Positions 707-64,000 of a stretch of DNA of 64,000 nt are shown here, piece by piece (position 1 is the stretch's first letter; each line of letters begins with the position of its first letter). The DNA comes from JAWLHK01 sp041690355 [NCBI: bacterium] (lineage in GTDB: Bacteria > J088 > JAWLBW01). A program made the translations under genes and the position numbers. The notes beneath the pieces are model-generated. The model was not told where the DNA came from. It saw nothing but the letters and a program-made list of their open reading frames with translations, and did not search any database. The DNA is taken from positions 310,001 through 374,000 of the forward strand of contig JAWLHK010000002.1 of assembly GCA_041690355.1 (NCBI GenBank), in the 5' to 3' direction.

Positions 707-733
707 GCGTTCGGGCCGGGCCCGAACGCTCAT
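703..733. terminator. Perfect palindrome over a stop codon, between convergent genes
   Basis: Bases 703-717 and 719-733 are exact inverse complements around a single central G. This gives a hairpin of about 14 bp with a 3-base loop. The lipoprotein stop codon (704-706) lies in the left arm. There is no T-run, but the site is between two convergent genes, so it may act as a bidirectional terminator or a 3-prime stabiliser. A period-7 repeat array overlaps its last two bases and continues downstream. Confidence 0.6.
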
Positions 734-809
734 TCCTGATTCCTGATTCTTGATTCCTGACCGGAACGCCCAGCGACTGCCGGCTGAAGACTGCCGCCTG
801 AAGACTGTT
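732..809. repeat. Period-7 repeat arrays ATTCCTG (x4) and GACTGCC-type (x5)
   Basis: Two neighbouring arrays with a 7-base period. Bases 732-759 hold ATTCCTG, ATTCCTG, ATTCTTG and ATTCCTG. Bases 775-809 hold GACTGCC, GGCTGAA, GACTGCC, GCCTGAA and GACTGTT. The second array reaches the stop codon of the minus-strand permease (808-810). Read in that gene's direction, the stop is followed at once by CAGTCTTCAGGCGGCAGTC. Similar arrays recur in other intergenic regions of the window. Confidence 0.85.
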
Positions 810-3387: not shown

Positions 3388-3457
3388 GGTGCTCCTCGAA
3401 CGGCTGAAAGGATGAAAGAAAGGGGAACGGCGGCCGCGAACCGGGCGGGACCCGAGC

Positions 3458-4171
3458 TCAGGCCGGCTCGAATTCCTTGCGCGAAGCTTCGCGGATCTCT
3501 TCGATGAGGCCGTCCTTCACGATGACGATGCGGTCGCCCGCCTCGGCCACCTTCGGGTCGTGGGTGACGAGCACGATGGTCTGCTTGAACTCCTCGACCG
3601 TGCGGCGCAGCAGGCGCAGGATTTCGGCCCCCGTCTTCGAGTCCAGATTGCCCGTCGGCTCGTCGGCGAGCAGCAGGGCCGGGTTGTTGGCGAGGGCGCG
3701 GGCGATGGCGACGCGCTGCTGCTGTCCGCCCGAGAGTTCTTCGGGCTTGTGGCCGAGCCGGTGCTCGAGCCCGACGAGGGCGACCAGCTCCTTCACGCGC
3801 CGGTCGATGGTGGCCTTATCGACTTTTTCGAGCACGAGCGGGAGCGAGATGTTCTCTTCGACCGTCATCGTCGGCAGCAGGTTGAAGAACTGGAAGACGA
3901 AGCCGAGGCGGCGGCGGCGCAGCAGCGTCAGCTTCTGATCGCCCATTTCCTGGGTGCCCTGGCCCTCGATGACCACCTTGCCGCTCGTCGGAATGTCGAG
4001 CCCGCCGAGCAGGTGCAGCAGCGTGCTCTTTCCCGATCCGCTCGGGCCCATGATCGAGACGATCTCGCCCTTGTGGGCCTGGAGACTGACCCCCTTGAGA
4101 GCCTGCACGGCCTTGGCGCCGGTGCCGTAGGTCTTGGTCACGTTCTGGACATCAATCATTACATCGCTCAT
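3458..4171 (-). CDS. ABC transporter ATP-binding protein (LolD/YbbA/MacB family)
   Basis: A 237-residue ATPase with a complete nucleotide-binding domain: Walker A GPSGSGKSTLLHLLGG, signature LSGGQQQRVAIARAL, Walker B LLLADEPTG and a switch histidine in VTHDPKVAEAGDR. The FQFFNLLPTMTVEENI segment is typical of the LolD/MacB/YbbA family. The start chosen is the ATG at 4171 (MSDVMIDVQNV), where homology begins. A longer in-frame ATG at 4243 lies inside the predicted promoter. It forms a two-gene operon with the FtsX permease that follows and energises it at the inner membrane. The C-terminus is slightly extended and charged. Confidence 0.9.
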   Translation of the reverse strand: MSDVMIDVQNVTKTYGTGAKAVQALKGVSLQAHKGEIVSIMGPSGSGKSTLLHLLGGLDIPTSGKVVIEGQGTQEMGDQKLTLLRRRRLGFVFQFFNLLPTMTVEENISLPLVLEKVDKATIDRRVKELVALVGLEHRLGHKPEELSGGQQQRVAIARALANNPALLLADEPTGNLDSKTGAEILRLLRRTVEEFKQTIVLVTHDPKVAEAGDRIVIVKDGLIEEIREASRKEFEPA

Positions 4172-4214
4172 GAGCCTGCCCTTTGCGGAAAGTTGGCGGA
4201 AATCCGGAAGGGCC

Positions 4215-4243
4215 ATTATACATGGATACCCGCCCTTAATCAA
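4215..4243 (-). promoter_or_regulatory. Strong sigma-70 promoter of the ABC exporter operon
   Basis: On the minus strand TTGATT (4243-4238) and TATAAT (4220-4215) are separated by exactly 17 bases, close to consensus. Transcription would start near 4208, about 37 bases before the ATG at 4171. This also rules against the longer start at 4243. Confidence 0.7.
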
Positions 4244-4383
4244 CCGTGCGTTTAATTGGCGGTACGCTCCAATTCAAACAAGGTTTTCACGGAGGGGAGC
4301 TGCTGTCGGGCCGCTGGGGGGAGGCCCGTGGGGGACGAGGCATCCGCGTATCGTTAAAACGCTGTTTTGAGCCATTTTCCGCA

Positions 4384-4413
4384 TTGACGCCGCCCAGGGG
4401 TTCCGGGTAGGGT
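4384..4413 (+). promoter_or_regulatory. Candidate promoter of the alkyl-sulfatase-like gene
   Basis: TTGACG at 4384-4389 and TAGGGT at 4408-4413 are separated by 18 bases. The start codon at 4432 would follow a short leader containing AGGAG (4419-4423). The -10 element is weak. Confidence 0.35.
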
Positions 4414-4431
4414 TTGACAGGAGTTTCTACC

Positions 4432-6159
4432 ATGTCCCGTTTTTCCCTTCGGTTCCTCGCCGCGGCCGCTCTCTTAAGCGGATGCGCTTCACAGACCTCT
4501 GTCGCCCGCCTCCGGGCCCTCCCGCCCCGCGAGAGCATCGCGGAGCACTGCCGCGAGCAGATCGGCGCGCCCCGTATCGAACGCGTCGGCGAGCGCATCT
4601 ACGCGGCGCTTGGCTACGATCTGGCCAACACGATCCTCATCCGCACCGACGACGGCAACGTCATCGTCGATCCCGGCATGAGCCCGGCCCGGGCCGCGCG
4701 CGTCCGCGAAGATCTGCTGGCCGCGGCGCCGGGACCCGTGCGCGCCGTCGTCTACACGCACAGCCATATCGATCACATCGGCGGTGCCAGCGTGTGGGTC
4801 GAGGAGGGGACCGAGATCTGGGCGACCGACGCCTTTCTGCCGCACATGCTGAAGCAGTACGGCCGGTTTCAGCGCGCCGAGGCCATGCGCGGGCAGGGGC
4901 AGTTCGGCCGTCACGTTCCCCTCGAAGCGCTCCCGTGCTCGGCCATCGGGCGGCGGGTCGACATCGACGCCGCTCTCGAGTCGGGGGTACGCGTGCCGAC
5001 CCGCACCTTCTCGGGGCAGGCGTCGTTCACGATCGGCGGCGTTCGCTTCGAGCTTCGCGAGGCGCACGGCGAGACGCACGATCAGCTCTTCGTCTGGCTT
5101 CCGGGCGAGCGGATCCTGCTGCCCGGCGACAACTTCTATCACGCTTTTCCGAACCTCTACACGATTCGCGGCACCAGCGCACGGCCCGTCGACGTGTGGA
5201 TCGAAAGCCTCGACGCCATGCGCCGCCTCGCGCCCATGGCCCTGGTACCCTCGCACACGCGGCCGGTGGTCGGCGGTGACTTGGTGGCCGGGGCGCTTCG
5301 CGATTACCGTGACGGCATCCAGTGGCTGCGCGACGACGTCGTGCGCCGGGCCAACGCGGGGATGACCGTCGAGGAGATCGTTTCTTCGGTCGGCCTTCCC
5401 CCGCATCTTGCGCAACGCCCCTTTCTCCAGGAACTCTACGGGCAGGTCGACTGGTCGGCGCGCGCCATCTACGACAACGAACTCGGCTGGTTCGACGGCG
5501 ACCCGCTGGCGCTTTATCCGCTCGCGGCCACGGAGACGGCGCGGCGCACGGTGCAGCTCATGGGCGGGAGCGAGAAGGTGCTCGCCGCTGCCCGCGAAGC
5601 GCGCGCGCAGGGAGATCCGCGTTGGGCGGCTCACCTGCTCGGCCTGCTGCGCGACGCCCGCGCAGGCGATCCCGAGATCGTCCGCGAAGAGCTCGCGCGG
5701 AGCCTCGAGGCCGTGGCCGCCGGCGTGGGCAATACGAACGGGCGCGCCTATCTGTTGGAATCGTCGGTCGCGCTCACGGAAACCAGGAGACCGCTCCCGC
5801 GTGTGCAGCTCGATGATGCGCTGCTGGAGGGAATTCCCGTCAAGGTATTCATGACGCTCATGAGCGGCCGCCTGATCCCCGAACGGTCGGCGGCCGTCCA
5901 CGAATCGGTCGTGTTCCGCTTCGGCGAGCAGCAGTTCGTGCTTACCATCCGTCGCGGCGTGGCTGAGCTGGTGGAAGGGGAACCCCTCCCCGGCACCCCC
6001 GAGCCGCTGGCGGTCGTGCATACCGATCCGTTGACGTGGAAGCGGCTGGCGCTGCAGATCGACAGCCCGGCCGCGGCCCTGCTGTCGGGGCGGCTGCGCA
6101 TCGAGGGGAGCCAGACGGGCTTTCTGGCCTTCACGAACCGCTTCGACCGCGAACTCTGA
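4432..6159 (+). CDS. Metallo-beta-lactamase-fold lipoprotein, alkyl sulfatase (SdsA/BDS1) related
   Basis: A 575-residue protein. MSRFSLRFLAAAALLSGCAS is a lipoprotein signal with lipobox LSGC. The metal-binding motif HSHIDHIGG begins at residue 110, and further histidines (REAHGETHDQLFVW, PSHTRPV) complete a two-zinc site. After the catalytic domain come a helical region of the alkyl-sulfatase dimerisation type (about residues 300-440) and a C-terminal sterol-carrier-like domain, the order known from SdsA1/BDS1 enzymes. Those hydrolyse alkyl sulfates such as SDS; here the substrate is inferred only. A predicted membrane-anchored periplasmic location is unusual but plausible. AGGAG lies 8 bases before the chosen ATG; an upstream start at 4414 would spoil the signal peptide. 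Confidence 0.8.
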   Translation: MSRFSLRFLAAAALLSGCASQTSVARLRALPPRESIAEHCREQIGAPRIERVGERIYAALGYDLANTILIRTDDGNVIVDPGMSPARAARVREDLLAAAPGPVRAVVYTHSHIDHIGGASVWVEEGTEIWATDAFLPHMLKQYGRFQRAEAMRGQGQFGRHVPLEALPCSAIGRRVDIDAALESGVRVPTRTFSGQASFTIGGVRFELREAHGETHDQLFVWLPGERILLPGDNFYHAFPNLYTIRGTSARPVDVWIESLDAMRRLAPMALVPSHTRPVVGGDLVAGALRDYRDGIQWLRDDVVRRANAGMTVEEIVSSVGLPPHLAQRPFLQELYGQVDWSARAIYDNELGWFDGDPLALYPLAATETARRTVQLMGGSEKVLAAAREARAQGDPRWAAHLLGLLRDARAGDPEIVREELARSLEAVAAGVGNTNGRAYLLESSVALTETRRPLPRVQLDDALLEGIPVKVFMTLMSGRLIPERSAAVHESVVFRFGEQQFVLTIRRGVAELVEGEPLPGTPEPLAVVHTDPLTWKRLALQIDSPAAALLSGRLRIEGSQTGFLAFTNRFDREL

Positions 6160-6162
6160 AAA

Positions 6163-6260
6163 CAGTCTTCAGGCGTCAGTCTCCGGTCCTCAGTCGGAAT
6201 TCGTCACTCGACACTCGATACCCGTCACTGAGTATTCGTCACTCGTCACTCGTCACTCAC
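6163..6260. repeat. Period-7 repeat array of 14 units after the sulfatase-like gene
   Basis: Fourteen consecutive 7-base units begin three bases after the stop codon, starting CAGTCTT, CAGGCGT, CAGTCTC, CGGTCCT, CAGTCGG, AATTCGT, CACTCGA. The last units drift to CACTCGT. The first 19 bases (CAGTCTTCAGGCGTCAGTC) match, in gene-sense orientation, the sequence after the ABC permease stop with one difference. Confidence 0.9.
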
Positions 6261-6314: not shown

Positions 6315-6408
6315 CAAGGTTCTTGCCGGAAACGCGTCACTCGTCACTCGTAACTGAACAAGGTTCTTGCCGCTCAATCGTCAATCGTCAATCGTAAATC
6401 GTCAATCG
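6315..6408. repeat. Direct repeat plus two further period-7 arrays before rseP
   Basis: CAAGGTTCTTGCCG occurs twice (6315-6328 and 6359-6372), 44 bases apart. Between the copies is a short GCGTCAC/TCGTCAC/TCGTAAC array (6334-6354). After the second copy is a five-unit TCAATCG array (6374-6408). It stops 15 bases before the predicted -10 box of rseP, so the array supplies the sequence at the -35 position. Confidence 0.8.
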
Positions 6409-55523: not shown

Positions 55524-55565
55524 GACTGATGACTCATGACTGCCGACTGCCGACTGACGCCTGGG
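55524..55565. repeat. Period-7 array (GACTGCC type) between convergent genes
   Basis: Units GACTGAT, GACTCAT, GACTGCC, GACTGCC, GACTGAC and GCCTGGG occupy 55524-55565, four bases before the minus-strand FecR stop at 55570. Read with the FecR gene the sequence after the stop begins GCGACCCAGGCGTCAGTC. This shares CAGGCGTCAGTC with the array at 6163. The rest of the interval (55346-55523) is moderately AT-rich, and no gene is seen. Confidence 0.85.
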
Positions 55566-55569
55566 TCGC

Positions 55570-56145
55570 TCAGCGCGCCCGCAGTTCGGCGATGTCGTCG
55601 TCGGTATGGCCCAGCATCGGGGCGTCTTCGGGCGCCGCGCCGATGCGGAATCCCCGGTGATGCTCGGCCGCGACCTGGGCGATCTTTTCGCGGCCCGTCG
55701 GGTCGTGGATGTCGAGTTCCCCGTTGCAGATGCAGATGTAGGTGCGCTCGCCGGCTTCCGAGGCCACATAGAATGTAGTTCCGCGCACGCCCGCCACGGC
55801 CGTGTCTCCCTGCACGCTGTACGGGCGTCCGGTCACGATGCTGAGCAGGCGGCCCGCGAGAAGCCGCACCGGATTCCGCCTGGATTCCGCCGGAATGACA
55901 AGGTCGGTCTTCCCGAACAGACGCATGCGTACGTCGCTCTCCATGACCACGTCGGCCCGCGAGCCCTGTCCGGTCTTCAGCCGATCGCCCTCGCGAACCG
56001 GTGTTCCCTGAACGGCCGGCTTTCCGTTCACGGTCAGGGTTCCCTCGAGAAAGGCGACCTTGCCCCGGTCGGCGGCGACGGCGGCGCCCGGAAAGAGCAG
56101 GGCGGTGAGCATCAGGGTGGGCAGGAGGCGCAGGCAGCGGGTCAT
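55570..56145 (-). CDS. FecR-domain exported protein
   Basis: A 191-residue predicted periplasmic protein. The signal peptide (MTRCLRLLPTLMLTALLFPG, cleavage near AVAAD) is followed by a FecR-type domain: GKVAFLEGTLTVNGKPAVQG, VREGDRLKTGQGSRADVVME, VRMRLFGKTDLVI and TAVAGVRGTTFYVASEAGE. FecR domains in stand-alone proteins are found in secretion, sensing and repeat-rich surface systems; a TonB-linked sigma factor is not nearby. A short CICNG segment with two cysteines follows. Start 56145 is fixed by signal peptide and GGAG site. Confidence 0.85.
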   Translation of the reverse strand: MTRCLRLLPTLMLTALLFPGAAVAADRGKVAFLEGTLTVNGKPAVQGTPVREGDRLKTGQGSRADVVMESDVRMRLFGKTDLVIPAESRRNPVRLLAGRLLSIVTGRPYSVQGDTAVAGVRGTTFYVASEAGERTYICICNGELDIHDPTGREKIAQVAAEHHRGFRIGAAPEDAPMLGHTDDDIAELRAR

Positions 56146-56249
56146 CGGATTCTCCGGGGATCGTGCTGAAACCTTAGCACCTTCGGGATGCATTGCGCCA
56201 GCCTGCGGTTGCTTTCTGGTTCCTGGAGCCGCAACGGGTCATGTCGGTC

Positions 56250-56298
56250 GACTGACGACTGAGGCTCGAGGACTTGGGACTGCGGACTGACGACTGCG
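56250..56298. repeat. Period-7 array GACTGAC-type before the metallophosphoesterase
   Basis: Seven units: GACTGAC, GACTGAG, GCTCGAG, GACTTGG, GACTGCG, GACTGAC and GACTGCG. They lie in the divergent intergenic region between fecR-like and metallophosphoesterase genes. No other gene is seen in 56146-56383. Confidence 0.85.
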
Positions 56299-56383
56299 GC
56301 GCCGCTCGCCGACCCGGCCCTGCGTGGGAGCGCCGCATCGACTCCCGTCTGGCGAAAGAATCCAGTACAGTAAGAAGATCACC

Positions 56384-57742
56384 ATGATCATGACGACGCT
56401 CTTTCCCTGGCTGGTGCTTGCGCTCGCGGCGGTGCCGGCGTTTCTGCTCGCGCGCGAGAACTGGCGGTACCTCGTCGGGACGCTGGTCTTTCTCGCGCCG
56501 CACACCGTGACGCTGCTGATCTTTCGCGACCACCTCGCCGCATTGCTGGCCGACGGTCTTCTGCGCGCGGCTGCGGATGGGGTCCTGCTCTTCTTCTATG
56601 CGGCCTTCATCGTCACCTTCGTCACCCACTTCATTCTCGTGAGCGCGCCGCGGCGGCCGCATATGTTCTGGGTGGTGCCGGGGCAGTTCTTCTTCGTCTC
56701 GATCTTCTTTTACCTCGTGTACTATCTGGGGCGCGGCGCGGCCGGCCTGTTCGGCATTGAACTGAGCCGGGGATCGATCGCCGCGGGCGTTCCGCTGGTC
56801 ATCACGGCCGTCGCGCTCCTGACCACGCACCGGGTGCGCCGCGTGCGCGAACAGGTTCCCCTCGCGGGACTCACGGCGCCGCTGCGCGTGGTGCAGCTCT
56901 CCGACATCCATGTCAGCCACCACATGGACGATGCCCGGCTCGCCCGGCTCGCCCGGGACGTGAATGCGGAGGGTGCGGATATCCTCGTGATGACCGGCGA
57001 TTTCGTGACGCTGCAGAGCGAGCATGATTACACCCCGCTGCTGCGGTTCGTGGCGGAACTGGAACGGCCGCCGATGGGGATCTTCGCCTGTCTGGGGAAT
57101 CACGACCTGGGAATCGCGGCGCCGCTGACGCGCGACCTCGAGGCCGCCGGGGTGCGCATGCTGCGCGACGCCGGCGAGACGGTGACCACGCCGCGGGGCG
57201 ACGCGGTGCGCGTGGCGGGCCTGGGGTTCTTCTGGCGCCGCCGACGCGCGCGCTACGCCGCCGCCTTCGCCCAGGCTGCCGGCGAGGGTGACGCGCCGGT
57301 GCTTCTGCTCTGCCACGATCCGGCGGCGTTCGATTACCTGCCTGCGGACTGGCGGGGGATCATGTTCGCCGGCCACCTGCACGGCGGCCAGATCGGGCTG
57401 ACCAGTCTCGGGCTGCGTCTCTCGGTACTGACGCCGCTCGGCATGTACGACCAGGGGCTCTATCACCGCGGTGAGCATTGGCTCTACAGCCACCGGGGAA
57501 CGGGGCTGTACGGATTTCCCGCGCGTCTGGGGGTGCCCGCCGAGGTCGCGGTGCTCGATCTCGTGCCGGAGGCCGAAGCGGATCGCCGCCGGGTCCGTTC
57601 CCGTCCCGCGCGCCCGGCGCGGGCCAGTGTGTCGGTCAGTGCCGCTGCGCCGGTCGAGCTGACGGGTTGGCGGGCGGTGGCGGCGCGCCTCTTCTTTTCC
57701 ACCCGCGAAGCCGCGCCGGCGTTCGAGGACGACGAGGGCTAG
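56384..57742 (+). CDS. Membrane metallophosphoesterase
   Basis: A 452-residue protein. The N-terminal about 160 residues hold four or five predicted membrane helices (LFPWLVLALAAVPAFLLA, VLLFFYAAFIVTFVTHFIL, QFFFVSIFFYLVYYLGRG). The C-terminal domain is a calcineurin-like phosphoesterase with VQLSDIHVSHH, VMTGDFV, CLGNHDLG, LLCHDPAAFDYL and MFAGHLHGGQ, so all metal ligands are present. This matches YaeI/YkuE-type membrane phosphoesterases, which act on lipid or cell-envelope phosphoesters. A charged, Arg-rich tail follows residue 395. Start 56384 (or 56390) where the first helix begins; no good ribosome site. Confidence 0.88.
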   Translation: MIMTTLFPWLVLALAAVPAFLLARENWRYLVGTLVFLAPHTVTLLIFRDHLAALLADGLLRAAADGVLLFFYAAFIVTFVTHFILVSAPRRPHMFWVVPGQFFFVSIFFYLVYYLGRGAAGLFGIELSRGSIAAGVPLVITAVALLTTHRVRRVREQVPLAGLTAPLRVVQLSDIHVSHHMDDARLARLARDVNAEGADILVMTGDFVTLQSEHDYTPLLRFVAELERPPMGIFACLGNHDLGIAAPLTRDLEAAGVRMLRDAGETVTTPRGDAVRVAGLGFFWRRRRARYAAAFAQAAGEGDAPVLLLCHDPAAFDYLPADWRGIMFAGHLHGGQIGLTSLGLRLSVLTPLGMYDQGLYHRGEHWLYSHRGTGLYGFPARLGVPAEVAVLDLVPEAEADRRRVRSRPARPARASVSVSAAAPVELTGWRAVAARLFFSTREAAPAFEDDEG

Positions 57743-57744
57743 GC

Positions 57745-57793
57745 GGACGCCGGACGCCGGACGTCGGACGTCGGACGCCGGACGTCGGACGTC
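57745..57793. repeat. Period-7 array GGACGTC/GGACGCC, seven units
   Basis: Units GGACGCC, GGACGCC, GGACGTC, GGACGTC, GGACGCC, GGACGTC and GGACGTC, then GGTAAAG. The last 21 bases match the array at 61891-61918 closely, including the GGTAMAG end. Confidence 0.9.
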
Positions 57794-57823
57794 GGTAAAG
57801 CAAGGGCAAAGCAAGAACCCGTG

Positions 57824-58014
57824 CGACCCCGCTGGGGTCGAAATTCCGTACCCAAACGCGCGAGAGCTCAGAAGTGCGACCCCGCTGGGGTCGTGAGGGG
57901 GCGCCGCAGGCGAGTCGAAGCGGGTGCTGCACGATGCGACCCCTCCGGAGTCGAAATGCGTCAAAAAGGGCGCGCGTGCTAAGTGATGCGACCCCGCTGG
58001 CGGCGTGCGGGGTC
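57824..58014. repeat. Four copies of a CGACCCC-palindrome element
   Basis: Copies: CGACCCCGCTGGGGTCG at 57824-57840 and 57877-57893 (identical, 53 bases apart), a diverged copy at 57937-57953, and an expanded one with GACCCC (57990) and GGGGTC (58014) around a longer loop. Each can form a hairpin. The unit is preceded by TGCGA or GATGCGA in all copies. They resemble short palindromic repetitive elements. Confidence 0.85.
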
Positions 58015-58034
58015 CGCAAGACGCCCTTGTTTCC

Positions 58035-58066
58035 CCAGCGCCCAGCGTCCAGCGACCAGCGCCCAG
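58035..58066. repeat. Period-7 array CCAGCGN near the dehydrogenase stop
   Basis: CCAGCGC, CCAGCGT, CCAGCGA, CCAGCGC and CCAG(GAT), ending 8 bases before the dehydrogenase stop codon. Confidence 0.8.
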
Positions 58067-58073
58067 GATCCCC

Positions 58074-59339
58074 TCAGGCCGCCGGCCCGGCCAGCGAAAT
58101 CTCGTGCCCCTCGGCGCGCAGCAGGTCACGCGCGATGCTGAGCAGCTGAATGTCGCTCGTGCCCCCGCCGATGCGCAGCAGCTGGGCGTCGCGCATCAGG
58201 CGCTCGACCCGCATCTCGCGCATGTAGCCGGCGCCGCCCATCAGTTGCACGGCTTCGAGCGCCACCTCGGTGGCCACTTCGGCGCAGTAGTACTTCGCCG
58301 CGCAGGCGTCGCGCATGTTCCCCTTGCCCTTCTTCTGCAGCCAGATCTGCTTGAACGCCATGTTGCGCACGTTCTCATAGGCCACGAACATCTTCGCGAG
58401 GCGCGCCTGCACGAGCTGGAAGTCGGCAATCGGGCGGCCGAACTGCTTGCGCTGAATGGAATAGCGGACGCATTCCTCCAGGCACCGCTCCATGATCCCC
58501 ATGGCCATGTACGGGGTGCCGCTGCGCTCGCCCTCGAAGATGGCCTTGGCCTGCTCACGCGAGGATTCCGTCAACGAGCCGAGCAGGTTCGCCTTGGGCA
58601 CCCGGACGTCGTCGAGAAAGACTTCGCCCGTGGGAGACCCGCGCATGCCCATCTTGTCCATCGGCTCGCTCGTGCTGAGCCCCGGCATCCCGCGTTCGAC
58701 GACGAAGGGGTAGACGCGCGATTTATCCTGCCGGGCGCCGTCGATCTTGGCGTAGATGACGAAGATGTCGGCGTGGGGGGCGTTCGTGATGAACGTCTTG
58801 CTGCCGTTCAGCACGAAGTCGTCGCCGTCTTCGCGGGCCACCGTCTGCAGGGCGAACGCGTCGCTGCCGCTGTTCGGCTCGGTCATCCCCCAGGCGCCGA
58901 TCTTCTCGAGCGTCATGACGGGGATGGCATACTTCTCAATCTGTTCGGCATTGCCGCGCGTGATGAGCGTGAAGCCGCAGAGCCCCATCTGGGCGGCCAT
59001 GCTGAGAAAGAAGCCCGGGCTGACCCGCGCGGCCTCTTTGCCGAGCATGGCCATGATGGCGGGATCGCCGGCAAGGCCGCTCGGATCGTCCTGTTCTCCG
59101 GTCAGCTCCCGCACCGACACGCCGCCGCCGGCTTCGCCGGCCCGCAGCTTGGCGGCCCGTTTCTGCAGGCCGGCCCGCAGAGGCTCGACCATGCCGAAGG
59201 TCGTGAGCATCTTGCGGATGATCGGATAGGGGAGCATCTCTCCGTTCTCGAGCGCCTCGACGTGGGGTTCCAGCTCTTCCTTGAAGAAGGCCCGCAGGGC
59301 GCTTTCGAGCATCAGATGCTGTTCCGACCATGTGAACAT
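58074..59339 (-). CDS. Acyl-CoA dehydrogenase
   Basis: A 421-residue flavoenzyme. N-terminal helical domain (LESALRAFFKEELEPHVEAL), FAD-binding GAWGMTEPNSGSDAFALQT, middle beta-domain (NGSKTFITNAPHADIFVIYAK) and C-terminal domain (RKQFGRPIADFQLVQARLA and VQLMGGAGYMREMRVERLMRDAQLLRIGGGTSDIQ in outline). The region after RDAQ reads IGGGTS, not YEGT, so the catalytic Glu is probably in CLEECVRYSIQRKQFG, as in isovaleryl- and long-chain-type enzymes. It oxidises an acyl-CoA to enoyl-CoA. Start ATG 59339 (MFTWSEQHLMLE), four bases after the upstream barrel gene stop. Confidence 0.92.
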   Translation of the reverse strand: MFTWSEQHLMLESALRAFFKEELEPHVEALENGEMLPYPIIRKMLTTFGMVEPLRAGLQKRAAKLRAGEAGGGVSVRELTGEQDDPSGLAGDPAIMAMLGKEAARVSPGFFLSMAAQMGLCGFTLITRGNAEQIEKYAIPVMTLEKIGAWGMTEPNSGSDAFALQTVAREDGDDFVLNGSKTFITNAPHADIFVIYAKIDGARQDKSRVYPFVVERGMPGLSTSEPMDKMGMRGSPTGEVFLDDVRVPKANLLGSLTESSREQAKAIFEGERSGTPYMAMGIMERCLEECVRYSIQRKQFGRPIADFQLVQARLAKMFVAYENVRNMAFKQIWLQKKGKGNMRDACAAKYYCAEVATEVALEAVQLMGGAGYMREMRVERLMRDAQLLRIGGGTSDIQLLSIARDLLRAEGHEISLAGPAA

Positions 59340-59343
59340 GAGA

Positions 59344-59943
59344 TTACCTGTCGCCGAAGTAGTAGTGGAAGAGGACGTTGCCGTTGGGGAGCGCGCCCAG
59401 GCTGACGTCGACCCCGCTGTCACTCGAGATTACGATCGTATTGGCGGCCGTGGGGGTTTCGACGGTGTGACTCAGCGAGAGAATCGTGATGCCGGCGTCG
59501 GCCGAGAGGCTGAACCGCTTCGAGCCGGGAAGGAAATATTCGGCGCCGGCCCCCGCGTATACCCCCACCCGGTCGGTGGTCATGGTCTGGGTCACGATGG
59601 TGTTGCGGCCGATATCAACTTCGCGATCGAACTGCTGCGACTCATAGCGCAATCCGCCCAGGACGAGAAACGAGACCGGATCGGTATTCACGATGCGGCG
59701 CGCATACTGCAGGCCGAATCCGAAGGCCGTTTCCTGGCCCAGCCCCAGCGCCGTCGTCCGATCGATCTGCGACAGGCTCGAGAAATCGAGAAACAGATCG
59801 ACGACGTTGTCGTTCATGATCTCGGCACGCACGCCGAGCTGGTCGATTCCCAGATCGGCCCCGAGGCGGAAATCGGCGGCCTGCGCGGCCGTCGAGACAA
59901 GGAGCGTTCCCAGAAGAGCGGTCAGAGAAAGAATGCTTCGCAT
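59344..59943 (-). CDS. Small exported outer-membrane beta-barrel-like protein
   Basis: A 199-residue protein with a signal peptide MRSILSLTALLGTLLVSTAAQ (cleavage after AQA). The mature part has alternating hydrophobic strands and glycine/aromatic residues (FRLGADLGIDQLGVRAEIM, FGFGLQYARRIVNTDPVSF, VGVYAGAGAEYFLPG), consistent with an OmpW/OmpX-like eight-stranded barrel or opacity-family protein. No domain is firmly assigned. GAGAGGAT precedes ATG 59943. It is followed four bases later by the acyl-CoA dehydrogenase on the same strand, so the two may be co-transcribed; the functional link is not evident. Confidence 0.75.
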   Translation of the reverse strand: MRSILSLTALLGTLLVSTAAQAADFRLGADLGIDQLGVRAEIMNDNVVDLFLDFSSLSQIDRTTALGLGQETAFGFGLQYARRIVNTDPVSFLVLGGLRYESQQFDREVDIGRNTIVTQTMTTDRVGVYAGAGAEYFLPGSKRFSLSADAGITILSLSHTVETPTAANTIVISSDSGVDVSLGALPNGNVLFHYYFGDR

Positions 59944-60048
59944 GGTAATCCTCTCGGCAGAGTAAGTGTACCGAAATGCTAGCATGCCGCCGTAAAGCGC
60001 GGCAAATCCGCGTACGGCGCGTTGCGTCAGGGTTTCGGCGGCCTCGGT

Positions 60049-60077
60049 TTGAATCCGGGCGGATCGAGGGGTAAGCT
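60049..60077 (+). promoter_or_regulatory. Promoter of the TatT-like gene
   Basis: TTGAAT (60049-60054) and TAAGCT (60072-60077) with a 17-base spacer, 33 bases before the GTG start. Confidence 0.5.
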
Positions 60078-60109
60078 GATGAACAGCCTGCCAACAAGGA
60101 GGTGCTCTC

Positions 60110-60964
60110 GTGTTCCTTCGTGTCATCAACCTTCCCCTGCGCGCGCGAGGGGCCGTGCTGAGCCTGGGCTTCGTGCTCGGGGTCATCGCCGTTCCGACCG
60201 TCGCCCCGGCTTCGTCTGCCGCGCTGTTCGAACGGGCCAATCGCATCGACTGGTCGGCGCTCGGCACCCCGGCGCCGGTGCAGCGCCATCTGGAGCAGTT
60301 TCTCCAGGTCGTCAAAGCCGACCCGGAACATCGCGAGGCCCGCATCCGGGCGCTCGAATTTACGTTTTATGCCTGGCGCATGGAGCCCGATCGCACCAGG
60401 CGGCTTGCGCTCGTCAAGAACGGGCTGCGCCTGGCCCAAGACGCGCTGAAGCGTTTTCCCCGCAGCGGGCCGATCCATTACTGGCACGGGTCCATGGTGG
60501 CCATGCTCGGGCTGACGCAGGGGGTGCTCAACAGCCTTCAGCTCATTCCCGCGGGCAAGGCGAGCCTCGAGAAGGCGGTGGAGCTGGACGAGGGCTACCG
60601 CGACGGTCAGGCGATCGCGAACATGGCGCGCGTGTACACGGTCGTGCCGGGGTTCCCCATCAGCCTCGGCGACAAGGAGAAGGGGAAGAAGATGCTGCGC
60701 GAGGGATACCGGAAATACCCGAACAGCAGCTACTTTCCGCTCTTTCTCGCTGACGCCGAATGGGCCGACGGCAATGTCGAAGCCGCGCTCCGGTTGGCCC
60801 GCGAAGCTCAGCACAAGCCGCGGCGGAACGATTATTCGGGGCTCGTGAACGCCATCAACGCGCGCAAGGCGAAGGAGCTCGAGAAGCTCATCCGCAGCGG
60901 GGCGGTGCGGGATCGCTTTCACGACGTGCTGAGCGATCACGAAGCGGCGGGCGTGCTCAACTGA
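60110..60964 (+). CDS. TPR-repeat TatT-like exported protein
   Basis: A 284-residue protein. A hydrophobic N-terminus (LSLGFVLGVIAVPTVAPASS) suggests a signal peptide or anchor. The rest is helical TPR-like repeats, with IHYWHGSMVAMLGLTQGVLN and KASLEKAVELDEGYRDGQA resembling TatT/TRAP-associated proteins and the lipoprotein at 50316. GTG start with a very strong AAGGAGGT six bases upstream. There is no TRAP gene next to it, so it may be an orphan TatT-like subunit or a general periplasmic repeat protein. Confidence 0.75.
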   Translation: MFLRVINLPLRARGAVLSLGFVLGVIAVPTVAPASSAALFERANRIDWSALGTPAPVQRHLEQFLQVVKADPEHREARIRALEFTFYAWRMEPDRTRRLALVKNGLRLAQDALKRFPRSGPIHYWHGSMVAMLGLTQGVLNSLQLIPAGKASLEKAVELDEGYRDGQAIANMARVYTVVPGFPISLGDKEKGKKMLREGYRKYPNSSYFPLFLADAEWADGNVEAALRLAREAQHKPRRNDYSGLVNAINARKAKELEKLIRSGAVRDRFHDVLSDHEAAGVLN

Positions 60965-60984
60965 ACGGCGGGCCTGGCGTGCGG

Positions 60985-61013
60985 TTGGCGCTGCGCAGCC
61001 TGCGTGGTAAGAT
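60985..61013 (+). promoter_or_regulatory. Promoter of the lipoprotein gene
   Basis: TTGGCG (60985-60990) and TAAGAT (61008-61013) with a 17-base spacer, 83 bases before the ATG. Confidence 0.5.
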
Positions 61014-61096
61014 ACGGGGCCGCGGACGGATCAGCGTTCCGTGAGTCGGCTGGCGGCGATCCCTTTTTTGGACTCTTGCAGCATTCAGGAGAGAAC

Positions 61097-61738
61097 ATGA
61101 CCCGGAAAGTACTTCAGTTTCTTGGACTCGCCGTCGCGCTGGCGGCCTGCACGCCGACCTACTACGTCAAGGTTTCGCCGACGGGCGACTTCAAGAAAGC
61201 CAAGGAGCAGCCGAAGCTGCGCTATGCCGTCGCGGTGCGTCCGCTCGAAGACGGCCGCAAGGTCAGCAGCGACCCCGAAGCCGTGCGCCGCATCGGCCGC
61301 GTCGGCCAGGGGCTTTTCGACTCTGACGCCGCCTTCATCGAACCGGAGCAGACCGTAGTCCTGTCCGAAGAAGTCACTGAGGGGCTGGTCGACGCCCTGA
61401 AGGCCCGGGGCGTGGTCATCGCCCCCGAAGACAAGGCCAGCCTGTTTCTCGAGGGAAAGATTACGAAGTACTCCATCAACGGCCGCTACACGAACATGCC
61501 GATCGGTCCGGGCATCGCCATTGAAGGCACGTTCCGGGCGACGCTCGCGCTGGTCGCCAAGACCAAGAGCGGCAAGGTCGTGTGGAAGGACACCATCAAG
61601 TATCAGAAGCGCGACGAAGACGCGATCATCCTCGTGACGCAGGGCAAGATTGAAGAGTTCTACCACTCGCTCGCCAAGAAGGGCGCGAAGGGCGTGCTCG
61701 TGAAGGCCGCGAAGACCGTGGCTGAAGTCAAGCTCTGA
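61097..61738 (+). CDS. Predicted lipoprotein of unknown function
   Basis: A 213-residue lipoprotein. MTRKVLQFLGLAVALAACTP has a lipobox LAAC. The mature part includes KLRYAVAVRPLEDGRKVSS, VVLSEEVTEGLVDALKARG and LEGKITKYSINGRYTNMPIG, a pattern often seen in envelope-associated lipoproteins with an LptE/CsgG-like or DUF-type fold, but no family can be named. AGGAGAG lies four bases before the ATG at 61097. A strong intrinsic terminator follows, so it is a monocistronic gene. It probably faces the periplasm. Confidence 0.75.
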   Translation: MTRKVLQFLGLAVALAACTPTYYVKVSPTGDFKKAKEQPKLRYAVAVRPLEDGRKVSSDPEAVRRIGRVGQGLFDSDAAFIEPEQTVVLSEEVTEGLVDALKARGVVIAPEDKASLFLEGKITKYSINGRYTNMPIGPGIAIEGTFRATLALVAKTKSGKVVWKDTIKYQKRDEDAIILVTQGKIEEFYHSLAKKGAKGVLVKAAKTVAEVKL

Positions 61739-61759
61739 GCTCCGCTCTTTTCCACGAAC

Positions 61760-61794
61760 AAGGGCCGCTCCCGGCAGGGAGCGGCCCTTTTTTT
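61760..61794. terminator. Strong intrinsic terminator
   Basis: AAGGGCCGCTCCC (61760-61772) pairs with GGGAGCGGCCCTT (61777-61789) around GGCA, a 13-bp perfect stem, followed by a T-run up to 61794. The reverse direction also has a short A/T run, so it could serve both sides. Confidence 0.92.
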
Positions 61795-61812
61795 GTCTGG
61801 AGGAGCGGGAGG

Positions 61813-61896
61813 CTACTTCTGGCAGTCTTCGAAGACCTGCAGCTCCTGATGGGAATCCTCGATCTCGCCGGGCGGGTCGAGCCTGTAACAGGACAT
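61813..61896 (-). pseudogene. Possible remnant of a minus-strand gene C-terminus
   Basis: On the minus strand a frame ends DPPGEIEDSHQELQVFEDCQ then K and TAG at 61813-61815. The amino-acid mix looks like a real C-terminus, and it stops beside the terminator. Going upstream the frame runs into a period-7 repeat array at 61891-61918, and only about 27 codons remain. It may be a gene cut off by the repeat region, or a chance frame. Confidence 0.3.
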
Positions 61897-61918
61897 CGGA
61901 CGTCGGACATCGGACGTC
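61891..61918. repeat. Period-7 array GGACATC/GGACGTC, left arm of the S23 cassette
   Basis: Units GGACATC, GGACGTC, GGACATC and GGACGTC, then GGTACAG. Bases 61893-61920 match the inverse complement of 62436-62463 at 24 of 28 positions. Confidence 0.9.
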
Positions 61919-62463
61919 GGTACAGACAAATGCTGTCCGCGGGGGAGCATTTACTCGCTCGAAAAGGAGGGGGTATGCGAGGGAAATCGTTCAAGGACCT
62001 GGACGTGTGGCAGGGGGCAATGGATCTCGCGGAGGAGGTCTATCGGCTGTCGAAGAACTTCCCGAAAGAGCAGCGTTATTCACTGTGTCAGCAGATCGAG
62101 CGTGCTGCCGTGTCGGCCCCGTCGAATATCGCGGAGGGCCACGGCCGAAGAAGCGACAACGAGTTCATTTACCACCTTCGTGTCTCCCGAGGTTCGCTTT
62201 GCGAGCTTGAGACGCAGCTTCTGCTGGCCGAGCGTTTGCAATTCATGGATCCGGAAAGCGGGCGTGCGGTAGGCGAAGCGCTGCATCGGGTTGGACGCCA
62301 GCTCAACGGTCTGCTACGGTATTTATCGAATGGCAATACCGGCTTCCCGAGTCCAGAGCCCCGACAGCCGACCCGAGCGTCCCAATGGACGCCGTAGGCC
62401 CTTTCCACCCCGGCTGACCAATGCTCGTTCTGTCACCGACGTCCGGCGTCTGACGTCCGATGA
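61893..62463. other. S23-family gene flanked by inverted repeat arrays
   Basis: Inverted copies of the GGACGTC-type array bound a segment of about 570 bases: left arm 61893-61920 and right arm 62436-62463. The only gene inside is the four-helix-bundle protein at 61975. The layout resembles a mobile or recombination-prone cassette, but no transposase is present. Confidence 0.55.
61975..62397 (+). CDS. Four-helix-bundle protein, S23 / 23S rRNA intervening-sequence family
   Basis: A 140-residue protein. FKDLDVWQGAMDLAEEVYRL, LCQQIERAAVSAPSNIAEGH and the FIYHLRVSRGSLCELETQL block match the S23/IVP family (TIGR02436). That family is named for genes inside 23S rRNA intervening sequences and is related to the Avd accessory proteins of diversity-generating retroelements. 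Here it is in neither context. The S23 core ends near residue 118; a Pro-rich tail follows. AGGAGGGG precedes ATG 61975. Cysteines and a basic surface suggest nucleic-acid binding (inference). Confidence 0.88.
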   Translation: MRGKSFKDLDVWQGAMDLAEEVYRLSKNFPKEQRYSLCQQIERAAVSAPSNIAEGHGRRSDNEFIYHLRVSRGSLCELETQLLLAERLQFMDPESGRAVGEALHRVGRQLNGLLRYLSNGNTGFPSPEPRQPTRASQWTP

Positions 62464-62468
62464 CCGGC
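62441..62468. repeat. Period-7 array GTCCGGC/GTCTGAC, right arm of the S23 cassette
   Basis: Units GTCCGGC, GTCTGAC, GTCCGAT and GACCGGC, the inverse of the GGACGTC family. They lie directly before the Rhs fragment. Confidence 0.85.
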
Positions 62469-62470
62469 CA

Positions 62471-63193
62471 GTGCAAGTCTTCCGCGAGTATCCGGAATTG
62501 CGGGAGGCGATGAACTACGCGCTTCGCGGCGCCGCGTGGGTGCTCGAGTTCTGGATCACGCCGGCGCATGCGGCGCCGGTGGAGCAGCGGTCGACGGCGG
62601 TCTACTGGTACCACAACGGCATCCTCGGCGAACCGATTCTCCTCACGGATGAAAGCGGCGCCATCGTCCGCCACGTGGAGCATGATCCGTTCTGGTCGGA
62701 CACGATTCCCCTCGTGGACGACGTGGACGACCGGTTCATGTTCCCGGGGCAGTTCCGCGATGACGAGTCGGGGCTCGCGTACAATTGGAACCGGTGGTAT
62801 GCGGCGGATGTGGGACGGTATGTGCAGGTGGATCCGCTTACCATTGCTACTACTCGATTACTCAAAGACCGTCTCCCTAAGCACTTCTCATCTAAAGACG
62901 TACTCTTTGTACGCTCACTTCTTGGAGTGGAGGTGTACGGATATGTAAGGGGGAACCCTGTTCGATACCAGGATCCGTTAGGCTTGATAGAGATTGAGGG
63001 CCAAGATCCCCGGCGCCTGCCTCCCGGAGCAAAGATTCTTTGCTCATGCTCTATGGATGGATCGTGCGCTGGAACTTCAAGCGTGGATTGGGATGACGCT
63101 TGGGATAGTTATAAAGCAACGTGCAGGGATTGCAGAGGGAATGTCCTTGGTTATTCCCTGGATTGCGAAGTTCGGGAACACACTTGCTGTTAG
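62471..63193 (+). CDS. Orphan Rhs core with cysteine-rich C-terminal tip
   Basis: A roughly 240-residue protein whose middle is the Rhs repeat-associated core: VYWYHNGILGEPILLTDESG, FMFPGQFRDDESGLAYNWNR and GRYVQVDPLT, then after a 30-residue insertion YGYVRGNPVRYQDPLGL. The large N-terminal Rhs shell is missing, so it is an orphan or 5-prime-deleted module. The tip after DPLGL (about 65 residues) is unlike known toxins and has eight cysteines. Base composition drops from GC-rich to about 50 percent near 62840. GTG 62471 is one possible start; ATG 62510 (MNYALRG, signal-like) is another. Confidence 0.7.
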   Translation: MQVFREYPELREAMNYALRGAAWVLEFWITPAHAAPVEQRSTAVYWYHNGILGEPILLTDESGAIVRHVEHDPFWSDTIPLVDDVDDRFMFPGQFRDDESGLAYNWNRWYAADVGRYVQVDPLTIATTRLLKDRLPKHFSSKDVLFVRSLLGVEVYGYVRGNPVRYQDPLGLIEIEGQDPRRLPPGAKILCSCSMDGSCAGTSSVDWDDAWDSYKATCRDCRGNVLGYSLDCEVREHTCC

Positions 63194-63208
63194 ATTGTAG
63201 GAGGCAGG

Positions 63209-63913
63209 ATGGTTGCCGTTGTTCTGATTCTACTCGTTGGGGCGTCGCCGACCGGCGTGCCCGAAACTAGAAATCTGATATGGGCTAGACCAGGCGAAGC
63301 CTTAATCACCTGGTTTGATGCTAAGTCTGCATGCGAGGCGTTGTCGAGCGACAAGAAATGGAGGTTGCCAAGTCGCAGGGAGCTCTCCACCCTGATTGCT
63401 GACCATGGTATTCCAGAATTCATCAAGCCTACAATAAACAAGGGCTTTCGATTCTGGACAAGCGATACATATGCCGAGCCGTGGGTTAATGGGGAGAAGG
63501 CGGGGGCAGCGTGGCTAGTAAACTTTCAAGATGGAGGGACTGGGGTAAACCGTAAGCGGGTCCCAAGCGCAAGACATATTTGCGTTTCCGGAGTGTACGA
63601 ACCTCTAATCCAAGCTACTTGGAACGTGCGACGTGAGTATGTTAGTTGGGAAAAAGCTTCTCAATTGTGTTCAACTCATGGTGGCAGGCTAGCAACAATA
63701 GAGGAGCTCAGAGCCGTAGTTGACACAAGTAAGATTAGCCCTGCGGCTATTGACTCGGTTCCGGTAAGTCCTGCGTGGTATTGGAGCGGTACTACGACGA
63801 CCGTAACTAACAGCAGCTGCTCTCACTCCTGTGTTCGAGCTGTTGAATTTTCCAAGGGGTTTGAGGGTCTGCGTTCTGCCAACTCCTTGGCATACCCGCT
63901 TTGTGTTAACTAG
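63209..63913 (+). CDS. Exported protein with two DUF1566-like (Lcl_C) domains
   Basis: A 234-residue low-GC gene 15 bases after the Rhs stop, with AGGAGG four bases before the ATG. The N-terminus MVAVVLILLVGASPTG looks like a signal peptide. Two similar halves follow: one with WRLPSRRELSTLI, FRFWTSDTY and ARHICV, and one with GGRLATIEELRAVVD, YYWSG-like YWSGTTTT and YPLCV. These are DUF1566 hallmarks, a C-type-lectin-like fold. A gene right behind an Rhs tip is often its immunity gene, but immunity proteins are usually cytoplasmic for cytoplasmic toxins, so this is inference. Confidence 0.7.
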   Translation: MVAVVLILLVGASPTGVPETRNLIWARPGEALITWFDAKSACEALSSDKKWRLPSRRELSTLIADHGIPEFIKPTINKGFRFWTSDTYAEPWVNGEKAGAAWLVNFQDGGTGVNRKRVPSARHICVSGVYEPLIQATWNVRREYVSWEKASQLCSTHGGRLATIEELRAVVDTSKISPAAIDSVPVSPAWYWSGTTTTVTNSSCSHSCVRAVEFSKGFEGLRSANSLAYPLCVN

Positions 63914-63921
63914 CCACTTTC

Positions 63922-64000
63922 TGCGCTCCGAAGGCGTGCGTCCGAGCGCGGCGCTCGCCCGCGTGCTCGACGAGCCGGGTGTGGTCGAGCGCATCCTGCG
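63922..64000 (+). other. Resumption of GC-rich sequence at the window end
   Basis: GC-rich sequence returns abruptly right after the DUF1566 gene. In one plus-strand frame it reads LRSEGVRPSAALARVLDEPG then VVERIL to the window end, plausible coding sequence without a visible start in this window. It may be a neighbouring gene or a displaced fragment. Confidence 0.3.

What the first reader, a model, noticed from the sequence alone, without database searches (positions are those of the whole stretch)
61893..62463. S23-family protein gene enclosed by inverted period-7 arrays
The four-helix-bundle (S23/IVP) gene at 61975-62397 sits alone between inverted GGACGTC-type arrays that match at 24 of 28 positions. 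The left array shares its unit and its GGTAMAG end with another array at 57745-57793. S23 proteins have no known job outside 23S intervening sequences. A physical link to the repeat arrays suggests the protein may act on the repeats (binding, spreading or stabilising them). This is a candidate new repeat/protein system.
Basis: partly seen in the sequence, partly recalled or inferred. Interest (0 to 1): 0.75.

Follow-up and report, generated by a model that had tools for sequence, protein, structure and literature searches.

The report
S23 genes mobilised with heptamer arrays
A small bacterial protein gene of unknown job sits inside what looks like a mobile element whose two ends are mirror-image runs of a 7-base repeat, and in the bacterial family tested, genomes with such genes are mostly the ones rich in matching repeats, which may help explain why 7-base repeats are so common in bacteria.

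Summary
In the window, S23/PF05635 gene 61975-62397 lies between inverted period-7 arrays (27 of 31 positions match; 0 of 300 shuffles as good). Of 86 S23 loci from many phyla, 43 have a period-7 array within 150 bp on at least one side and 22 on both, against 18 and 2 of 259 control ORFs; the flanks are inverted repeats in 54 of 86 against 5 of 259. In one family, 42 of 54 genomes with S23 and 11 of 65 without are rich in heptamer arrays. Between accB and accC, related genomes show three states: empty, a hairpin of arrays only, or arrays plus S23. At that site S23 proteins sort by array unit and the host gene does not; arrays elsewhere in a genome tend to match its own S23 unit. I conclude that S23 genes are the protein-coding form of a family of minimal mobile elements with heptamer-array ends, and that 23S rRNA intervening sequences belong to it. 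Inferred, not shown: that S23 recognises the unit and drives its spread.

The parts
61891..62465 (+). whole S23 element: 5' array, S23 gene, inverted 3' array
   Evidence: inverted match 27/31 between its two ends; RNA fold closes on the arrays, z -5.2
61891..61921 (+). 5' heptamer array, unit GGACRTC (G-rich strand at the 5' side)
61975..62397 (+). S23 / four helix bundle protein gene (PF05635, TIGR02436), 140 aa; AGGAGG at 61965-61970 as likely Shine-Dalgarno
   Evidence: predicted structure matches 2gsc (XCC0516) at rmsd 0.6
62435..62465 (-). 3' heptamer array, reverse complement of the 5' array
57744..57795 (+). solo array with the same unit (GGACGYC, about 7 copies), no inverted partner among the window's matches nearby

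Best explanation
The window feature is one copy of a widespread minimal mobile element. Its ends are inverted arrays of a variable 7-base unit (G-rich strand at the 5' side) and its only gene is S23. Shorter forms, perhaps deletion derivatives, that keep two inverted arrays and a spacer are scattered as non-autonomous hairpins. I propose that the S23 protein, a four-helix bundle of the Avd fold that is a pentamer in its solved relative, recognises its own unit in the array (as RNA hairpin or single strand) and lets the element copy itself into, or replace, arrays elsewhere with host enzymes. Inside a transcript the paired arrays make a hairpin that RNase III can cut, so insertions into rRNA (IVS) or operons are tolerated. 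Shown by sequence: element anatomy, the three allele states, agreement of unit and S23 type, genome-level association in one family. Inferred: binding, unit recognition, the copying route, host enzymes.
For: Arrays flank S23 in 43/86 loci (both sides 22/86) against 18/259 and 2/259 controls; inverted 54/86 against 5/259. Over 130 de-duplicated S23 loci the best period is 7 in 76, 8 in 10, 12 in 1, none in 43. Polarity: 5' arrays have G>C in 56 and G<C in 4 of 63; shared core YAG|G in the 46 arrays outside the L075 family, 3.46 bits against 20 nulls with mean 2.82, largest 3.06. accB-accC site, 30 loci: 8 empty (10-11 bp), 3 with 59-105 bp and no arrays, 2 with a 136-140 bp hairpin, 16 with a 439-464 bp S23 element, 1 unreadable; the hairpins of G001 and G107 carry the unit of those genomes' own S23 elsewhere. 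On cyanobacterial plasmids L297, L298, L299 the likeness (78-82%) spans about 418 bp and ends at the arrays; no other match over 60 bp between them. In G038 and G113 a dispersed hairpin sits at the same site with matching flanks but a different unit and spacer, and the S23 cassette differs likewise. S23 tree: unit classes AAT/ATT need 1 change (99/99); accC tree needs 4 (66-83 of 500 shuffles as low). GTGAAT arrays: 535 and 77 matches in G047 and G117, 8 or fewer in the other 117 genomes; these two are the only ones of 30 read S23 flanks with GTGAATC. Own-class share of arrays 0.617 against 0.309 shuffled, 0 of 20000 as high. Genome association. Fold. S23 in a 23S gene with inverted arrays: L006.
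Against: 11 of 65 S23-negative genomes are array-rich, G127 with 158 matches; 12 of 54 S23-positive genomes have under 10 matches. Host-tree contrasts are too few: of 5 independent pairs 3 agree, 0 oppose, 2 do not differ, p 0.25. Only 13 of 20 genomes have their own S23 class as the commonest class. 43 of 130 S23 loci show no array, and 18 of 259 control ORFs have one. In 8 of 86 loci the flanks match better as direct than as inverted repeats. No target-site duplication was seen. S23 has no known catalytic domain. The exchanges between G038 and G113 could be recombination with other strains. No binding or mobility was measured.
Confidence: 0.7

Rival explanations
1. S23 is a passenger. Heptamer hairpins spread by other means (replication slippage plus recombination between arrays) and S23 is cargo that rides in some of them.
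For: Printed proposal that 7-nt repeats come from polymerase slippage (PMC4679880, PMC4692102, passages). 11 of 65 S23-negative genomes are array-rich. The element has no known enzyme.
Against: Unit-blind samples: 0 period-7 arrays in 40 S23- genomes against 17 in 40 S23+ (score 14; 2 against 22 at score 12), although no sample holds an S23 gene. A passenger does not explain why arrays elsewhere match the S23 unit or why listed neighbouring arrays are inverted with one polarity (18 of 19 opposite-strand neighbours within 600 bp, four genomes).
Confidence: 0.15
2. The S23 cassettes and hairpins do not transpose; allelic replacement by homologous recombination in shared flanks moves them between strains.
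For: Near-identical flanks around exchanged cassettes and hairpins.
Against: The same element lies at unrelated sites in L297, L298 and L299 with the likeness ending at the arrays; one site has empty, hairpin and S23 states; PF05635 has 1 to 17 matches per genome in 22 genomes.
Confidence: 0.1
3. S23 works exactly as Avd does: with a resident reverse transcriptase that copies the array RNA.
For: Fold match to Avd alone and in the DGR reverse-transcriptase complex (4dwl, 8ube, 8ub7; rmsd 1.7-2.4, Foldseek E 0.011-0.035); weak bAvd profile match (31.9 bits, cut-off 40).
Against: RVT_1 is in 11 of 54 S23+ and 13 of 65 S23- genomes, and in only 7 of the 20 most array-rich ones.
Confidence: 0.04
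4. The arrays are only cis signals of the S23 gene (ribosome-binding site and RNase III stem).
For: In some elements the 5' array carries an AGGAG at Shine-Dalgarno distance (L297-L299); array stem in the RNA fold.
Against: Hundreds of array matches in genomes with only one or two S23 genes, and hairpins without S23 at the accB-accC site.
Confidence: 0.01

Closest known systems
23S rRNA intervening sequences (IVS) with an S23p ORF (Coxiella, Leptospira, Brucella)
   Same: S23 gene between complementary ends that form a stem. The Azospirillum lipoferum 4B copy L006 (2501-2852) lies inside a bacterial LSU rRNA gene (Rfam RF02541 at 1286-4484) and has inverted ends (score 23.5) of period-7 type, though each array alone is weak (10.5). 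Warrier et al. 2016 report tandem heptamers GACAGAT before the Coxiella S23p ORF (PMC4990558, passages).
   Different: The window copy is not in an RNA gene known to Rfam, and of 129 other loci only L006 matches 23S flanks (blastn). IVS papers seen treat the stem as an RNase III substrate; I found no paper stating the general array rule or a dispersed family.
RAYT transposases with REP/REPIN repeats
   Same: Protein gene flanked by inverted repeats plus a genome-wide set of non-autonomous hairpin repeats with matching sequence (comparison recalled; REPIN paper PMC3116915 seen in search listings only).
   Different: S23 is not a Y1/HUH transposase (Pfam gives only PF05635 and a weak bAvd match); the ends are tandem 7-nt arrays, not single palindromes.
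Avd of diversity-generating retroelements
   Same: Same fold: 4dwl and 8ub7 at rmsd 1.7. PF05635 is said in print to resemble Avd (PMC10053308, passage).
   Different: No RVT_1 dependence, profile matches below the curated cut-offs, and no reverse transcriptase among the 8 window ORFs scanned.
Heptamer repeats of Xanthomonas and Nostoc (GGGAATC, GGGGAYT), cyanobacterial STRR, Beggiatoaceae TAACTGA repeats
   Same: Intergenic period-7 arrays; GGGAATC is one of the S23-flanking units seen here.
   Different: The main texts of PMC4692102 and PMC4679880 hold no mention of S23 or four helix bundle ('find'); I saw passages only.

Membership tests
S23 / PF05635 / TIGR02436 | profile score over the curated cut-off | tested here: met
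   123.2 bits against 33.8 and 116.3 against 24
S23 / PF05635 / TIGR02436 | four-helix bundle as in 2gsc | tested here: met
   AlphaFold2 model pLDDT 88.5, rmsd 0.6-0.8 to 2gsc chains
S23 / PF05635 / TIGR02436 | homopentamer | not testable with these tools
   2gsc and 2rld list five chains each; the pentamer of the Xanthomonas protein is stated in PMC4990558
23S rRNA IVS | lies in an rRNA gene | tested here: not met
   no Rfam family in window 56000-64000; L006 does lie in one
23S rRNA IVS | complementary ends that close a stem | tested here: met
   27/31 match and fold
23S rRNA IVS | excised by RNase III | not testable with these tools
   needs an RNA experiment
REPIN/RAYT | Y1 (HUH) transposase gene | tested here: not met
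   no such family among the Pfam hits of the S23 ORF
REPIN/RAYT | dispersed repeats that match the protein gene's flanks | tested here: met
   own-class share 0.617 against 0.309 in 20 genomes; GTGAAT case; tested in relatives of L075, not in the window's genome
DGR accessory protein Avd | Avd profile over cut-off | tested here: not met
   bAvd 31.9 of 40; DivGenRetAVD 34.2 of 80
DGR accessory protein Avd | works with a reverse transcriptase | tested here: inconclusive
   no association in genomes (RVT_1 11/54 against 13/65); a partner outside RVT_1 or supplied from elsewhere is not excluded
DNA transposon / MITE with terminal inverted repeats | empty, full and short alleles at one site | tested here: met
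   accB-accC site
DNA transposon / MITE with terminal inverted repeats | target-site duplication | tested here: inconclusive
   none apparent by eye at the accB-accC site, but the empty and filled alleles compared are too diverged to be sure

The most novel reading that the evidence does not exclude
S23 proteins are unit-reading factors that make and spread period-7 arrays: a class of mobile element with no enzyme of its own, in which a toroidal four-helix-bundle protein reads a 7-base unit and drives its copying into new sites and its replacement at old ones. Protein and unit co-evolve (residue 15 A/S with ATT/AAT units, residue 64 Y/L with GGG/GTG units). This would be a cause of the long-noted excess of 7-base repeats in bacterial genomes, and 23S IVSs would be its rRNA-inserted members.
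Probability: 0.55. Interest if true: 0.95.

Novelty: categorically new. Interest (0 to 1): 0.88.

Why it matters
It gives a testable job to a protein family with a structure solved in 2006 and no known function. It offers a cause for the excess of heptamer repeats in bacterial genomes, put down in print to polymerase slippage. It joins 23S rRNA intervening sequences, intergenic four-helix-bundle genes and heptamer arrays into one element family. It also warns that S23 genes found in CRISPR-cas loci may be inserted elements rather than CRISPR parts: the copy L003, between cas6 and cas4, has long period-7 arrays on both sides, here mostly in the same rather than inverted orientation.

Tried and rejected
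Resident reverse transcriptase as a required partner: no support. Period 8 as one S23 clade: not supported, 7 changes against a shuffled mean of 8.6-8.8 (6 of 500 shuffles as low, so weak clustering), tree of 111 of 130 proteins poorly resolved. Using G038:C1 as a homologous stretch to G113 failed; the matches were about 70% paralogues. The single-protein scans of genome contigs and viral contigs and the phage search found no relative. Phylogenetic contrasts: underpowered. Residue links 15 and 64 rest on 20 sequences of one site; residue 15 coincides with a single deep split and counts as one event; residue 64 = L occurs in at least two separate places of the S23 tree, once in the AAT and once or more in the ATT part. 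Rows dropped: 18 of 148 S23 loci that shared an identical 120-bp stretch of the gene; 2 of 88 loci with too little flank; 10 of 30 genomes whose S23 flank fitted none of four unit classes; 2 of 22 loci without a found accC start; 1 of 30 accC loci likewise; one search counted places of four genomes whose lists showed both strands, and left out G044 and G096. For the unit-blind samples I took 40 of 54 S23+ and 40 of 65 S23- genomes, one contig end each, up to 20 kb.

Full report
OBSERVATION. The gene at 61975-62397 is an S23/PF05635 protein. It stands between arrays 61891-61921 and 62435-62465, which match in inverted orientation at 27 of 31 positions; 0 of 300 shuffles and 2 of 1500 random window places do as well. 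A third array at 57744-57795 has the same unit. The folded RNA closes on the two arrays (z -5.2). No whole genome is held for the window, so the tests below use other genomes.

S23 GENES ELSEWHERE. In 86 of these 88 with enough flank, a period-7 array (score 14 or more, within 150 bp) lies on at least one side in 43 and on both sides in 22. Among 259 control ORFs of the same loci the figures are 18 and 2. At that threshold periods 4-6, 9 and 11-13 occur in 0 of 86, period 10 in 1, period 8 in 8; period 14 (29) is the harmonic of 7. The two flanks match as inverted repeats in 54 of 86 against 5 of 259 controls, as direct repeats in 14 against 4. With 59 more loci and the window, and loci with an identical gene stretch removed (130 left), 75 of 128 with enough flank have an array on one side or more (score 12 or more) and 37 on both. 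The unit letters differ from locus to locus, but the 5' array is mostly the G-rich strand (56 G>C, 4 G<C, of 63), and the units outside the L075 family share a core YAG|G (46 arrays, 3.46 bits; 20 nulls, mean 2.82, sd 0.12).

GENOME LEVEL. In the family of the Pseudoxanthomonas locus L075 (G001), 54 of 119 genomes have S23. A four-unit heptamer pattern has 10 or more matches in 42 of 54 genomes with S23 and 11 of 65 without; medians 124 and 0, totals 8809 and 590 overlapping matches, reversed-pattern control 176 and 10; 24 of the 65 have at least one match. Unit-blind: contig ends of up to 20 kb from 40 of the S23+ genomes (696 kb) hold 17 period-7 arrays in 11 genomes, those from 40 S23- genomes (679 kb) none, at score 14; at score 12 it is 22 and 2. 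Periods 6, 9 and 12 are similar in both sets (7, 9, 11 against 8, 7, 8). None of these 80 samples holds an S23 gene (tblastn), so the arrays counted are not S23 flanks. Genomes are not independent: on a host tree of 33 genomes 5 supported independent pairs could be formed, 3 agree, 0 oppose, 2 do not differ (p 0.25).

DISPERSED ARRAYS OFTEN FORM HAIRPINS. In the places listed for four genomes, neighbouring arrays within 600 bp run G-rich then C-rich in 18 cases (one of them the S23 element of G060), the reverse in 1, same strand in 2. Several sequences read show array, short spacer, inverted array.

THREE STATES AT ONE SITE. In many of these genomes S23 sits between the stop codon of accB and the start of accC (in G113 the neighbours match TIGR00531 BCCP and TIGR00514 accC over their cut-offs). 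Of the 30 loci closest to G113, one could not be read. The site is empty (10-11 bp) in eight (G126, G066, G120, G099, G093, G032, G051, G075) and 59-105 bp without arrays in three (G073, G092, G127). It holds a 136-140 bp array hairpin in two (G107, G001) and an S23 element of 439-464 bp in the other 16. The two hairpins carry the unit that flanks S23 elsewhere in the same genome (GGGACCC in G107, GGGACCG in G001).

EXCHANGE AND BOUNDARIES. G038 and G113 are 98-99% identical beside this site, yet their S23 proteins are 70% identical and their units differ (GGGATT, GGGAAT). At a second site a dispersed hairpin has matching outer flanks but a different unit and spacer. On plasmids of Trichormus, Aulosira and Nostoc (L297-L299) the S23 element is 78-82% identical over about 418 bp and the likeness ends at the arrays, with different genes outside. 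Other plasmid pairs share more than the element (L292/L293, L294/L295, L001/L291).

UNIT AND PROTEIN GO TOGETHER. For 20 S23 elements of the accB-accC site the S23 tree divides into ATT (14) and AAT (6) units with a single change, support 99/99; the tree of the neighbouring accC needs 4 changes, which 66-83 of 500 shuffles also reach. Since arrays and gene are one cassette, joint transfer alone would give this; the stronger test is arrays elsewhere in the genome. GTGAAT arrays: 535 matches in G047, 77 in G117, 8 in G090, 2 or fewer in the rest (6 of 119 genomes with any); among the 30 S23 flanks of this family that were read, G047 and G117 are the two with GTGAATC. Over 20 classed genomes the own class makes up 0.617 of arrays, shuffled 0.309, 0 of 20000 as high, though it is the commonest class in only 13 of 20; one S23 copy per genome was classed. 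Residue 64 is L in all four S23 with GTG units (at least two separate places in the S23 tree) and Y in all 16 with GGG units; residue 15 is S with AAT and A with ATT.

LINK TO IVS. The S23 gene L006 of Azospirillum lipoferum 4B lies in an LSU rRNA gene (Rfam) and has inverted ends of the same kind (inverted score 23.5), though each array alone is weak (10.5). Warrier et al. 2016 (PMC4990558; abstract, introduction, discussion and passages read) describe variable tandem heptamers before the Coxiella S23p ORF and recall older suggestions that IVSs are mobile. So one instance is in print; I found no paper that states the general rule (eight searches; open-licence library only).

MECHANISM. The predicted structure matches XCC0516 (2gsc) and, more weakly, Avd alone and in the DGR reverse-transcriptase complex (rmsd 1.7-2.4, E 0.011 to 0.035). 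Avd-like RNA binding is therefore plausible, but reverse transcriptase genes are equally common with and without S23 (11 of 54, 13 of 65) and absent from 13 of the 20 most array-rich genomes. S23 lies on the strand of its left neighbour ORF in 75 of 101 cases and of its right neighbour in 65 of 101, as expected if the element lives in transcripts. My favoured reading: S23 binds its own unit in the array hairpin and directs copying by host replication or recombination enzymes; RNase III cutting keeps insertions harmless. Binding, copying and enzymes are inferred.

LIMITS. One family carries the genome-level test. Pattern matches are overlapping positions, not arrays. 43 of 130 S23 loci lack a detectable array. 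No target-site duplication or observed transposition is in hand. The window's organism was not identified.

Noticed in passing
window 729-760, 775-807, 6236-6258, 6374-6408, 55524-55563, 58034-58066: Further period-7 (one period-14) arrays with other units (ATTCCTG, GACTGCC type, TCGTCAC, TCAATCG, CCCAGCG), while periods 5, 8, 10, 11 and 13 give none at the same threshold and period 6 gives one. They suggest other S23 types in the same unknown genome.
   Followed up: partly
window 62470-63193: Rhs core fragment close behind the 3' array (RHS and Rhs_assc_core matches); the ORF scanned just upstream of the S23 element (61097-61738) matched no family, so no N-terminal Rhs part was seen.
   Followed up: no
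L003 2393-2970: S23 gene with long AAAAGCT/AAAAGCC arrays, in the same orientation, between cas6 and cas4 of a type I-D locus; a 2013 paper lists 18 S23 genes in cas loci as an associated function (PMC3936711, passage).
   Followed up: partly
L005, L010, L027, L037, L051, L066, L078, L086, L099, L144: S23 loci whose flank arrays have period 8 instead of 7.
   Followed up: partly
genomes G026, G034, G054, G062, G071, G077, G096, G119, G127, G136, G137: Array-rich genomes without a PF05635 match; they may have lost S23, have a gap in the assembly, or carry an unrecognised one.
   Followed up: no
window 57794-57820; L200 about 11575; L243 accB-accC hairpin: A similar stretch (AAAGCAAG or AACAGCAAGAGC) follows the 5' array in the window's solo array and in two dispersed hairpins; it may be a shared subterminal motif.
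   Followed up: no
genomes G006, G141, G194, G203, G212, G224 and others: Many PF05635 matches per Flavobacteriaceae genome (up to 16), several with stop codons inside, as decaying mobile genes have.
   Followed up: no
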